From a virus, in the IMG/VR virus record IMGVR_UViG_3300036766_001779, positions 1-51,986 of that record: 51,986 nt of DNA; one strand, 5' to 3'. Shown here piece after piece: positions 42,267-51,986 of the stretch (positions within the stretch are counted from its first letter, which is position 1; each line of letters starts with the position of its first letter). The notes below the pieces were generated by a model, which worked only from the letters and a program-made list of their open reading frames with translations, made no database searches and was not told the origin of the DNA. The translations under genes were made by a program, and so were the position numbers.

Positions 42267-43637
42267 TTAACTGCATTTAAGATCATCGTCTATGCCACAG
42301 AAAACTTTTTTGATGACTTTTTTAGTCATCAATGAATTTCCTAAATATCGCTTTTGAAATGTCTCATCAATTGTCCACTCGTCAACTGTTCCGCGGCAGT
42401 AAATGTCGAAGTAAAGGATGTCTTCGTGAATTTCCGAGCCAATACGATGTGAACGTGCTTCAGATTGGCTTCGCTTCAGCACAGACCATCCTCTACTGTA
42501 GTATATCACTGCAGAAGCTCGAGTGAGATTAATCATCTTCGAGCCGCTGCTGAGTGGAGCAACAAGAACTTCCACTTTGCCAGCTTGGAAGTCCTGCACT
42601 GATTTCGTGATATTCTCGCTCATAAGCCGACATTTATAGCCGTTTTTCACACACATCGCATATATCTGCTGCAGTTCGAAATGATAGTTAGCCCAAACTA
42701 CCGTTTGGCGCTTTCCAGCAAATTTACGCAGCAGAATCTTGAGTGCGGACAGTTTTGCTGAATGAAACTTAATGGCGTATCGGTCAAGAATGGAGGAGCC
42801 TTTCATATAGAATCCGCCGCCACAAATTTGCAGCAGCTTATTCAACTGTGCTACGATAAAACGTGTCTCATAGAACTGGTCCTCAATCTGCACCATAAAA
42901 TTCTCGAGCAGACTGTTATAGAAAATTTTTTGTTTGTGGCTGAGATTGACAGGTACGAGCTTGAATTTCTGCGGTGGAAGATGCAGCACCTCTTCTTTTG
43001 TCACTCTAAAGGATACACGTTCAATAATTCTTCGCAGCAGCTCTTTGGAGCCGGATTTCAGCTGCCATTCAAAGCCCGACTGAAAAAAATACTTGCTGCG
43101 AAATTTCATGAATGTGGAGCCGAACGTCTCTCCATCATCTAACCATTTAAACTGTCCCCATACGTCATACAGTGAATTTGTGAAGGGTGTTCCTGTAGCA
43201 ATCATACGATTAAACGTATCTCGTGTCCATCTGTAAAGAGCGCGTGCACGTTTAGAGCGAAAGTCCTTTATCGCAGTGGACTCGTCAACAATGATTGTTT
43301 CGAATCCTTTCTCCCACAGTTGACGGCCTATAGTGCGATAGATTTCGTAATTGCCTATATAAATTGCTGCAGGCTCTTGCAGCAACTTGAGCTTTTGAAC
43401 TTTTGTGCCCAGCAACTCCACAGCGGTCAAGTCAGTGTTTTGACGTATTTCAGCAGCGAGAAGTGAGATGTAGGATTTATCGATGAGGACGAGATTTGGC
43501 TGTGTACGCAAATGTTCTATCCACGAACAGTACATATAGGTTTTGCCTGTGCCCTGCTCTGCAAAAAGCGGAATCCTTGAGCGGGTCCTGGCCCACTCAA
43601 GGAAATCCACTTGCTGTGACTGCGGAATTCGCAGCAT
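42267..43637 (-). CDS. SNF2-family DEAD-box-like helicase
   Basis: The protein has 456 residues. Motif I is EQGTGKT (29-33), motif II VDES (118-121), motif III ATGTPFTN (near 148). The second RecA lobe has TVVWANYHFELQQI, SSGSKMINLTRASAVIYYSR and QSEARSHRIG (motifs V/VI). This is the compact helicase found in many phage replication blocks, probably for fork remodelling or recombination. It begins directly after the stop of the gene at 43637 (TAATG). Confidence 0.92.
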   Translation of the reverse strand: MLRIPQSQQVDFLEWARTRSRIPLFAEQGTGKTYMYCSWIEHLRTQPNLVLIDKSYISLLAAEIRQNTDLTAVELLGTKVQKLKLLQEPAAIYIGNYEIYRTIGRQLWEKGFETIIVDESTAIKDFRSKRARALYRWTRDTFNRMIATGTPFTNSLYDVWGQFKWLDDGETFGSTFMKFRSKYFFQSGFEWQLKSGSKELLRRIIERVSFRVTKEEVLHLPPQKFKLVPVNLSHKQKIFYNSLLENFMVQIEDQFYETRFIVAQLNKLLQICGGGFYMKGSSILDRYAIKFHSAKLSALKILLRKFAGKRQTVVWANYHFELQQIYAMCVKNGYKCRLMSENITKSVQDFQAGKVEVLVAPLSSGSKMINLTRASAVIYYSRGWSVLKRSQSEARSHRIGSEIHEDILYFDIYCRGTVDEWTIDETFQKRYLGNSLMTKKVIKKVFCGIDDDLKCS

Positions 43638-48610: not shown

Positions 48611-49570
48611 TTATGCGTTTGTTGATGTACGAACGACGGTCACACTAGCATCGTTCGAAATCGGAATTGGAGTCTGCACTGCAGGAGCCGTTACGTTGTG
48701 GGTCGCAGGACGGAAGCTCGGAACACCGGCCGGATTCAGCTCTCGTTGCCGTTTGTCAAACCACGCTTGCAGCTCTTTGTCCATACGAGTGAAGTATTTG
48801 AAATAGTATTTCAGGTCGTAGTTGATTTTGCCCTGTGGCATTTTGGACGCAATGGCGACGGACACAAAATTGACCATTAGACGGATGTAGTTCGTAATTT
48901 TGTCTCCATCTATCGAGCCCTGATGGCCTCTGAATTCCACAGTGCCGTACGTGTACTGGGGCTCGATGTTCATTTTGTAGTAACGGCCTCTCGGGCAGAA
49001 TTCACGGAAAAACTGGTCAACCGAATGGCTGTGCTCAGACATGTGCATGGCGTTCGTGAGTTTTTGCTCGAGAGTTGCAGTGCCAGTTCCAATGGCGTTT
49101 AGATTGGACTCGGCGTACCGTTGGGCACCACGGCGGGATTCGGAAAAAATCGTTTCCATCAGAGGCTCGAACTGCAGCCAACGTAGATATACACGGCGGA
49201 GCTGCTTGAGATTCATCATTCCAGTTCCGACATGCACGTGCAGGCCACAGGTCTTGTCCACTTTTCCGCCGGCCGTTTCGATGGCCTTGCAGACCTTCAT
49301 CACTTCGACAAGCCCTTCGGTCCCGCGCAGAATTGGGCTGACCATCTCGAGGCCACAGCCACATTCAGTTCCGGTTGAATTGACGGAACGGTCGACGCAG
49401 AGATTCCAAATTCCGTGAACACGATTGCCGTGATACGTGCCCGTCCAATGGCATGCCAAGTTGACATTTACCATCTGAGCCAGAACGGCGTTTGGTGTGG
49501 TGCCGAAGAATTCGATTTCGATTCCGTACGTCAGGTCCCGTATTCCAGTGATTGGCTTAATCTGCGGCAT
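48611..49570 (-). CDS. Amidoligase-family enzyme (COOH-NH2 ligase, Amidoligase_2)
   Basis: The product has 319 residues from ATG 49570, with AAGGAG upstream. The signature LTYGIEIEFFG (E18, E20) opens the domain, CGLHVHVG (H111, H113) carries the metal site, and YTYGTVEFRGHQGS near 210-225 is the third conserved strand. The family uses ATP to join an amine and a carboxylate, making peptide-like tags. The substrate is unknown. A gamma-glutamylcyclotransferase-like gene 3 kb away could remove or edit the same bond. The C-terminal 40 residues are Pro/Thr-rich. Confidence 0.88.
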   Translation of the reverse strand: MPQIKPITGIRDLTYGIEIEFFGTTPNAVLAQMVNVNLACHWTGTYHGNRVHGIWNLCVDRSVNSTGTECGCGLEMVSPILRGTEGLVEVMKVCKAIETAGGKVDKTCGLHVHVGTGMMNLKQLRRVYLRWLQFEPLMETIFSESRRGAQRYAESNLNAIGTGTATLEQKLTNAMHMSEHSHSVDQFFREFCPRGRYYKMNIEPQYTYGTVEFRGHQGSIDGDKITNYIRLMVNFVSVAIASKMPQGKINYDLKYYFKYFTRMDKELQAWFDKRQRELNPAGVPSFRPATHNVTAPAVQTPIPISNDASVTVVRTSTNA

Positions 49571-49614
49571 TTTTAAACTCCTTAATTTTAAACTATCAAT
49601 TATCAACTGTGTAC

Positions 49615-50783: not shown

Positions 50784-51104
50784 TTAGTGCTGTTTGAATT
50801 CATCGCCCTTGAAGTGATTCAGAAAGAAGTAAATGGCACCGTCAGGCGTAGCAAAAGGCTTGCGCTGATGGAGCCGGCCTTTTGAATCCCTGTACGTCAA
50901 CGTGTAACACCAGCCTGGGAAGTCGGCCAAGTTATAATTTGGGTCGAGCTTTTCCAGCTTGACTTGGCAGTAAACTTCGAACGGTTTCGATGGCTTTCCG
51001 AATCTTGCAAGCCGAGCTATTTTCACGAGCTGGGCGTTCAGCGCTTTGTTGTAGTTACTGCCAATTCTTTTGCGGCCTGCTGTTGAAATGTTATGAACGG
51101 CCAT
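50784..51104 (-). CDS. Hypothetical protein, 106 aa
   Basis: The product has 106 residues from ATG 51104, with GGAGG upstream. It contains a beta-rich stretch FEVYCQVKLEKLDPNY followed by GWCYTLTYRDSKGRLHQR and ends with GAIYFFLNHFKGDEF, the pattern of a small sandwich. Not recognised. It overlaps the next upstream gene by 14 nt. Confidence 0.65.
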   Translation of the reverse strand: MAVHNISTAGRKRIGSNYNKALNAQLVKIARLARFGKPSKPFEVYCQVKLEKLDPNYNLADFPGWCYTLTYRDSKGRLHQRKPFATPDGAIYFFLNHFKGDEFKQH

Positions 51105-51567
51105 TGCATCTGCCTCCACCGGTTTTATGTTCTTCGTCCTCCTTGAGGAGCATCGTCGGACCTTCACAGCAGGAATGTGCCCGCTCGACACAACGCCTGC
51201 AAATCAGTTGGCCGTTCACGAGCGTGAGCTGCTCCATAGGAGTCGGCTGATTACACTGCGAGCATAGGGCAATATCATTCTTTTGTACGCTCATGGTTTT
51301 TCTTCTTTCTGTTGAGTCTGCGGTTTCAATCCACGCTCCCGCGCGGGGAGCGACACCCGCAAGGCGGGCATCGCTGATGATGGAACTCAGACGAGAATAG
51401 CTGCGTTCCGTGTTTGAAATGAGATTCCGTGAGACGAACTGATAATACAATTGACGCAAGGTCAAATTGAAGCCCTGCTGCCTGTATTCTCGCGCGATTT
51501 TTTCCGCAGTGTTGATTGTCGCCAACGCTTTGCTGCGGAAATGCTTTTTTCTGTACTCAGTTTTCAT
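51091..51567 (-). CDS. Fusion frame: truncated wHTH/Toprim-family N-terminus, CRISPR repeat, zinc-ribbon protein
   Basis: The open frame of 158 codons starts at ATG 51567 (AGGAGG upstream). Residues 1-71 (NLTLRQLYYQFVSRNLISN, then SRLSSIISDARLAG) are the N-terminal wing domain of a longer family in phages and actinobacteria whose next conserved part is missing. Directly after DARLAG the frame runs into a 32-nt CRISPR repeat, read as VAPRAGAWIETA. It then joins a Cys4 ribbon protein (ALCSQCNQ, ICRRCVE) that has its own weak start at 51294. So it is either one chimeric protein or a truncated gene plus a 67-residue gene. Confidence 0.6.
   Translation of the reverse strand: MKTEYRKKHFRSKALATINTAEKIAREYRQQGFNLTLRQLYYQFVSRNLISNTERSYSRLSSIISDARLAGVAPRAGAWIETADSTERRKTMSVQKNDIALCSQCNQPTPMEQLTLVNGQLICRRCVERAHSCCEGPTMLLKEDEEHKTGGGRCNGRS
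51323..51354 (-). CRISPR. Solitary type I-C CRISPR repeat (candidate RNA anti-CRISPR)
   Basis: On the minus strand these 32 nt begin GTCGCTCCCC, contain the GCTCCC/GGGAGC hairpin and end GTGGATTGAAAC. Length, start GTCGC, palindrome and 3' end are those of subtype I-C repeats. No second repeat lies within the window, so this is not an array. There are no cas genes. Solitary repeat units in phages are known RNA anti-CRISPRs (Racr), which occupy Cas proteins as decoys. Confidence 0.85.
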
Positions 51568-51580
51568 AGCCCCTGTCCTC

Positions 51581-51986
51581 CTATTCCAAGTGTAAATCCT
51601 TCTTCAATTTCTGAATGACTATCATCGCCACATCGGCTTCCTCCAGTTCCCCACGAGACAGGCGGCATTTCGGGCAGTCGCAGGGATACTTTTTCAACGT
51701 TGCGTACATACGGCCTTGTACGAGTTGCTGCACAATTTCCGTTGCGACATTCAGATAAGAACAGAAGTCGCCAAAATTGTGGCCAACAACTGCGTTCTGT
51801 GCGCTGTCGTAATGGCCTTCGTACAAGAACCAGCCGACTGTTAGAATCTCGCTGTGTGTTTCTCCGCCGTGTTTGACCACCTTCATCGCAGCAGACTCTG
51901 TGATTACGAACGTCCTTTCGAAGGCTTGGACGACCAAAAACACGAGTTCTGCTCCTGAGGGATGGGGAAAATGAGCTATTTTCAGG
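51581..51986 (-). CDS. Hypothetical protein crossing the contig join (C-terminal part plus repeat)
   Basis: This segment encodes the end of the 199-residue protein that starts at 321. The stretch 51860-51986 duplicates 1-127. Visible motifs are SGAELVFLVVQAFERTFVI, then KHGGETHSEILTVGWFLYEG and, near the end, YPCDCPKCRLSRGELEEAD. The CDCPKC could be half of a zinc site. It lies 13 nt upstream of the fusion frame at 51567. Confidence 0.7.
   Translation of the reverse strand, partial: LKIAHFPHPSGAELVFLVVQAFERTFVITESAAMKVVKHGGETHSEILTVGWFLYEGHYDSAQNAVVGHNFGDFCSYLNVATEIVQQLVQGRMYATLKKYPCDCPKCRLSRGELEEADVAMIVIQKLKKDLHLE
51860..51986. repeat. Right copy of 127-bp terminal direct repeat
   Basis: Identical to 1-127. 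See the left copy: it marks the closing point of the circular map, so the unique genome length is 51859 bp. Confidence 0.95.

What the first reader, a model, noticed from the sequence alone, without database searches (positions are those of the whole stretch)
51323..51354. Solitary type I-C CRISPR repeat in a phage gene: candidate RNA anti-CRISPR
One perfect 32-nt repeat with the subtype I-C start (GTCGC), hairpin (GCTCCC/GGGAGC) and 3' end (GTGGATTGAAAC) lies in the sense strand of an early operon. No other repeat, leader or cas gene is nearby. It is transcribed in the direction that would give a Cas5d-recognisable hairpin. Established: solitary repeat units in phages can act as RNA anti-CRISPRs (Racr) by capturing Cas subunits. 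Inference: this phage blocks a host I-C system this way.
Basis: partly seen in the sequence, partly recalled or inferred. Interest (0 to 1): 0.9.

Follow-up and report, generated by a model that had tools for sequence, protein, structure and literature searches.

The report
CRISPR repeat scar in phage gene
A complete phage genome carries one perfect copy of a bacterial type I-C CRISPR repeat exactly where most of a topoisomerase gene is missing; it was probably picked up by recombination with a host's CRISPR locus, and whether it now blocks CRISPR immunity is unproven.

Summary
The repeat is real: 51323-51354 (-) is a perfect 32-nt type I-C repeat. The identical sequence lies in 49 stretches of bacterial genomes, beside I-C cas1 in six loci scanned. 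It is the only copy in a circular phage genome in which no cas gene was found.

The Racr reading is possible (RacrIC1 is a tested I-C precedent), but nothing specific supports it: no host, no acr/aca neighbour, an open frame runs through the repeat, and the canonical hairpin is predicted to lose to an upstream hairpin (pairing 0.012; below all 63 other solitary viral I-C repeats, though 7.6% of shuffled flanks do as badly).

A survey gave a general result: of 60 distinct solitary viral I-C repeats, 20 have the PAM TTC exactly one spacer length (33-36 nt) upstream (about 4 expected, P 9e-10), and one is a repeat+spacer unit inserted into its own protospacer. Solitary repeats thus often seem born by spacer-protospacer recombination. 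The window's repeat lacks that PAM, so for it this origin is inferred.

The parts
51323..51354 (-). Single perfect type I-C CRISPR repeat (32 nt)
   Evidence: Exact sequence, only copy in the window; identical in 49 genome stretches, beside I-C cas1 in six loci scanned
51355..51567 (-). 5' fragment (71 codons, ATG at 51567) of a phage topoisomerase-family gene, cut off at the repeat
   Evidence: phrog_6247 profile positions 2-75 of 303, E 2.9e-21; relatives continue for about 300 aa; the rest is absent from the genome
51349..51375 (-). Predicted 12-bp hairpin AGCGATGCCCGC-CTT-GCGGGTGTCGCT across the left joint, which occupies the first 6 nt of the repeat
   Evidence: RNA folding
51295..51322 (-). 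28-nt linker between repeat and next start codon, with a weak purine-rich ribosome-binding-like stretch
   Evidence: Sequence; right-hand joint
51091..51294 (-). 67-aa zinc-ribbon-like ORF downstream of the repeat, in frame with the gene fragment
   Evidence: only weak sub-threshold Pfam matches
51091..51567 (-). Uninterrupted 158-codon frame through gene fragment, repeat and zinc-ribbon ORF
51860..51986 (.). Terminal 127-nt overlap identical to 1-127 (circular genome)

Best explanation
A piece of a host type I-C CRISPR array was captured by the phage in a recombination event that removed about 230 codons of a topoisomerase gene and left a single repeat at the joint. Shown: an exact host-type repeat, a topoisomerase frame intact up to the repeat edge, the rest of that gene missing, a circular genome. 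Inferred: that the donor was the array of a host of this phage and that the joint arose by recombination (for many other solitary I-C repeats the flanks point to spacer-protospacer homology; here no PAM lies at spacer distance, so illegitimate joining or a lost PAM must be assumed). The repeat is probably transcribed in sense with the operon and could then bind Cas5d, but in its present flanks the hairpin is predicted mostly misfolded, so I judge it more likely a scar, or at most a weak decoy, than an optimised RNA anti-CRISPR.
For: Exact repeat of I-C hosts; gene fragment ends exactly where the repeat begins and its remainder is absent; predicted loss of the canonical hairpin in context; across 60 distinct solitary viral I-C repeats TTC lies 33-36 nt upstream in 20 against 4.0 expected, with one repeat+spacer unit inserted in its own protospacer (L098), so capture from arrays by recombination is a general route; recombination between spacers and phage targets is reported in the literature (Watson 2018, Varble 2019 as cited in PMC8616872).
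Against: The window's own left flank has TTC only at 28 and 40 nt, not at 33-36, and no flank duplication. No relative with the intact locus was found, so the deletion itself is inferred from the gene family. The hairpin argument is a prediction, and 7.6% of shuffled flanks do as badly.
Confidence: 0.45

Rival explanations
1. Functional RNA anti-CRISPR. The operon transcript exposes the repeat hairpin, Cas5d of a type I-C host binds and cuts it, and Cas subunits are drawn into a non-productive complex.
For: Perfect repeat in sense orientation in a gene block; RacrIC1 precedent, bicistronic with acrIC5 (PMC10651486); nine tested candidates there were all inhibitory; the exact sequence has been kept without a mismatch to host repeats.
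Against: Canonical hairpin predicted out-competed in context; open frame through the repeat; no acr/aca neighbour and no host found; no sign over solitary repeats in general that flanks are selected for hairpin formation.
Confidence: 0.35
2. Assembly artefact: the assembler jumped from the topoisomerase gene to the zinc-ribbon gene through reads of a CRISPR array (spacer-repeat-spacer), skipping a real segment.
For: Metagenomic contig; the gene is broken exactly at the repeat edge; array spacers share 33-36 nt with their targets, which can mislead short k-mer graphs.
Against: The contig closes with a 127-base overlap, suggesting that 127-mers span the repeat (inference); no PAM at spacer distance on the left; other solitary repeats recur in several metagenomes with 0.1-2% sequence differences, so such structures can be real.
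Confidence: 0.13
3. Coding fusion: the repeat simply serves as linker codons (VAPRAGAWIET) in a new 158-aa protein and has no RNA role.
For: One uninterrupted frame from 51567 to 51091.
Against: A separate ATG with a purine-rich stretch precedes the zinc-ribbon part; an in-frame join has about one chance in three; no homologous fusion was seen.
Confidence: 0.05

Closest known systems
RacrIC1, RNA anti-CRISPR of type I-C (Bifidobacterium pseudocatenulatum prophage; PMC10651486)
   Same: Single I-C repeat in a phage genome, in sense orientation next to a phage gene
   Different: RacrIC1 is intergenic, 11 nt behind acrIC5, and tested; here the repeat sits at the break of a truncated gene inside an open frame, has no acr neighbour, and its hairpin is predicted masked; function untested
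Solitary repeat units (SRUs) of viruses (Faure et al. 2019 as cited in PMC8616872; SRUFinder set of PMC10651486)
   Same: Full-length host-type repeat, no second repeat nearby
   Different: Published set excludes confident ORFs; this one lies in an ORF and marks a gene deletion
Phage-CRISPR recombination through spacers (Watson 2018, Varble 2019, as cited in PMC8616872)
   Same: Joins CRISPR-array DNA to phage-derived DNA
   Different: Reported for transfer of CRISPR-cas loci in transduction; here a single repeat, and no spacer match or PAM is visible in the window
Virus-borne mini-CRISPR arrays (PMC6858448)
   Same: Host-type repeats in a virus without cas genes
   Different: Mini-arrays have at least one spacer between repeats and, in SPV1/2, a leader; here there is one repeat

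Membership tests
Solitary repeat unit (SRU) | Full-length match (at least 90% identity and coverage) to a known CRISPR repeat | tested here: met
   100% over 32 nt with repeats of I-C arrays
Solitary repeat unit (SRU) | No other full or partial repeat within 100 bp | tested here: met
   No second copy in the whole window
Solitary repeat unit (SRU) | Intergenic position | tested here: inconclusive
   Lies inside the open frame 51091-51567, but between a truncated gene and a possible new start (51294)
RNA anti-CRISPR (Racr) | Repeat stem-loop able to form in the transcript | tested here: inconclusive
   Forms alone; predicted out-competed in its own flanks, not extreme against shuffled flanks
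RNA anti-CRISPR (Racr) | Transcribed and bound or cut by host Cas proteins; inhibits CRISPR interference | not testable with these tools
   Needs RNA and infection assays
RNA anti-CRISPR (Racr) | Host with a CRISPR-Cas system of the same subtype | tested here: inconclusive
   Repeat is I-C, but the host is unknown
RNA anti-CRISPR (Racr) | Nearby acr or aca gene (frequent, not required) | tested here: not met
   No acr, aca or helix-turn-helix match in neighbours
Spacer-protospacer recombination product | I-C PAM (TTC) one spacer length (33-36 nt) upstream of the repeat | tested here: not met
   TTC at 28 and 40 nt only
Spacer-protospacer recombination product | Matching spacer in a host array, or duplicated flank | tested here: not met
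   No duplication and no convincing match among 676 spacers; the true donor array is not in the set
Mini-CRISPR array | At least two repeats with a spacer between them | tested here: not met
   One repeat only

The most novel reading that the evidence does not exclude
Phages acquire solitary I-C repeats, the raw material of RNA anti-CRISPRs, from the very arrays that target them: recombination through a spacer joins the repeat exactly at the PAM-distal end of its protospacer. The window's repeat would be a deletion-type product of the same process, in which one event both removes phage sequence and brings in a potential decoy for the host's Cas proteins.
Probability: 0.3. Interest if true: 0.8.

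Novelty: new member of a known kind. Interest (0 to 1): 0.5.

Why it matters
As a single locus this is one more solitary I-C repeat, unusual in that the joint has cost the phage most of a gene. The survey it prompted bears on an open question: where phage-borne solitary repeats come from. The PAM at exactly one spacer length in a third of them (TTC or TTT in over half) points to recombination between a spacer and its protospacer, and implies that some catalogued Racr candidates may be scars rather than selected inhibitors. Both points are directly testable.

Tried and rejected
Close relatives with the intact locus: none for the upstream or downstream gene, only 27-30% identical ones for DNA polymerase, in viral contigs, and no DNA match in isolate phages. 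Host by spacers: 676 spacers from fetched arrays, no convincing match; 42 genomes carrying the exact repeat match, in the rows listed, only around the repeat and have no terminase relative. tRNAs: none. Rfam: nothing at gathering score; a sub-threshold CRISPR-DR9 match at the repeat. A promoter near solitary repeats as the cause of the T-rich signal: rejected, no -10-like box in register and TTG not enriched. Selection on flanks for hairpin formation over all solitary repeats: looked positive against array repeats but vanished against shuffled flanks. Type I-F as a second test of the PAM pattern: only two clean solitary repeats, neither with CC at 32 nt by eye, so generality beyond I-C is unknown. 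A shared insertion or deletion hot spot at the same gene position: L008 has an unrelated internal deletion.

Full report
1. What is there. The minus strand of 51323-51354 is GTCGCTCCCCGCGCGGGAGCGTGGATTGAAAC. The identical 32-mer was found in 49 stretches of GTDB genomes, mostly in arrays of several to dozens of repeats, in Nitrospirae, Planctomycetes, Deltaproteobacteria, Paenibacillaceae and others. Six of the loci examined have a type I-C cas1 (TIGR03640) close by, one also cas4. One other viral contig carries the identical repeat, in an unrelated context (L002). The window has no second copy even with 10 mismatches. The subtype and the solitary state are confirmed.

2. The genome. The record is a virus record of 51986 bases whose last 127 bases equal its first 127: a circular assembly; the length 127 suggests the assembler's final k-mer size (inference). 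It encodes a terminase, a Mu F-like head protein, DNA polymerase A, a Toprim/MCM protein, an SNF2-type helicase, a DUF932 protein and an amidoligase. No close relative was found. There are no tRNAs and the host is unknown.

3. The gene around it. The 158-codon frame 51091-51567 starts with 71 residues that match the first quarter of a phage topoisomerase family (phrog_6247, profile positions 2-75 of 303, E 2.9e-21). In viral contigs 455 stretches encode relatives, and nearly all of the 80 examined continue for about 300 residues with ...DARLAG(L/M/R)IDW...DRTR.... In the window the frame reads ...SDARLAG and then VAPRAGAWIET, which is the translated repeat. The rest of the family is found nowhere in the genome. 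Twenty-eight bases after the repeat an in-frame ATG opens a 67-aa zinc-ribbon-like protein. So the repeat sits at the joint of a deletion or replacement.

4. Would it work as an RNA anti-CRISPR? RacrIC1, a solitary I-C repeat 11 nt behind acrIC5, inhibits I-C immunity (PMC10651486). The repeat alone folds as it should. In its own flanks, AGCGATGCCCGC upstream pairs with GCGGGTGTCGCT, taking the first six bases of the repeat; with 20 nt or more of flank the canonical stem is 5-7 kcal/mol worse than the best fold, and its mean pairing probability is 0.012. This is below all 63 other solitary viral I-C repeats (median 0.97) and in the lowest 7% of 676 array repeats. With shuffled flanks 7.6% of trials are as low, so this is unfavourable but not extraordinary, and it is a prediction. 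No acr, aca or helix-turn-helix neighbour was found. The published SRU survey masked confident ORFs, so this case would probably not have been listed.

5. Where do such repeats come from? I collected 60 distinct, clean solitary I-C repeats from viral contigs, the window excluded. The I-C PAM (TTC) is prior knowledge; the spacer length (33-36 nt, mode 34) is that of 676 array spacers. TTC lies 33-36 nt upstream of the repeat in 20 of 60; control windows give a mean of 4.0 and a maximum of 8 (binomial P 9e-10). The pattern was first noticed in the first set; the three clean repeats from a second scan, made afterwards, all have it. TTC or TTT is there in 33 of 60 against 8.3, and T peaks at -37 and -36. 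TTG is not enriched and no -10 box is in register, which speaks against promoters. In L098 the structure is CATTC-[34-nt S]-repeat-G-[same 34-nt S]-AACCAGGAC inside an IS3-type transposase frame that resumes after the second S: one repeat+spacer unit inserted into its own protospacer. L122 and L091 carry shorter copies of the start of S after the repeat (3 cases against 0.38 in shuffles, maximum 3; small numbers). The simplest reading is recombination between a spacer in a host array and its protospacer in the phage or mobile element. Exchange of this kind is reported (Watson 2018 and Varble 2019 as cited in PMC8616872), and PMC6858448 suggested that phage mini-arrays gain spacers by recombination with host arrays. 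I found no report of the PAM pattern at solitary repeats in the papers available, but the library lacks most subscription journals. Assembly chimeras could produce some cases; repeats shared by related contigs with small sequence differences show that at least some are real.

6. Back to the window. Its repeat has TTC at 28 and 40 nt and neither TTC nor TTT at 33-36, and its flanks are not duplicated. It therefore does not carry the signature, and I do not file it as a spacer-protospacer product. The truncation at the repeat edge does fit capture by recombination. A joint made by illegitimate joining, or one whose PAM has been lost, remains possible. The palindrome across the joint (12 pairs including two G-U) may have played a part in the joining, or may be chance.

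7. Verdict. Observation confirmed. Interpretation partly supported: a candidate of the SRU/Racr kind, with specific features that count against efficient function. Best reading: a captured host repeat at a deletion joint (0.45). Rivals: a selected Racr (0.35), a skipped segment in assembly (0.13), a coding fusion (0.05). Origin and function are separate questions: a captured repeat may later be selected as a Racr. The survey result is more interesting than the locus and deserves follow-up on its own.

Noticed in passing
60 distinct solitary I-C repeats in viral contigs (L002, L083-L169, L221, L224, L231): TTC lies exactly 33-36 nt upstream of the repeat in 20 of 60 (4.0 expected), TTC or TTT in 33 of 60 (8.3 expected): many solitary repeats sit at the PAM-distal end of a protospacer.
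   Followed up: partly
L098:8764-8795 (-): A repeat plus 35-nt spacer unit is inserted into an IS3-type transposase gene exactly at its own TTC-flanked protospacer, giving S-repeat-S.
   Followed up: yes
L085 and L087 (one contig), L094 and L137 (one contig), L116: Some viral contigs carry two or three solitary copies of the same I-C repeat at separate places.
   Followed up: no
L083, L085, L087, L091, L122, L165, just after the repeat: Six of 58 distinct solitary repeats are followed directly by AAAC, a repetition of the repeat's last four bases; unexplained.
   Followed up: no
L106:9907-9938: A solitary I-C-like repeat lies in frame inside a frame of about 890 codons without a stop.
   Followed up: no
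L008:2995-3395: Another phage has an internal deletion in the same topoisomerase gene, about ten codons after the window's break point, with the C-terminal end retained and no repeat.
   Followed up: partly
window 42267-43637 (-): SNF2-type helicase with best defence-library matches to the helicase parts of ZorD and DpdE; probably an ordinary phage helicase.
   Followed up: no
window 48611-49606 (-): An amidoligase-family protein (PF12224) is encoded among the small minus-strand genes.
   Followed up: no
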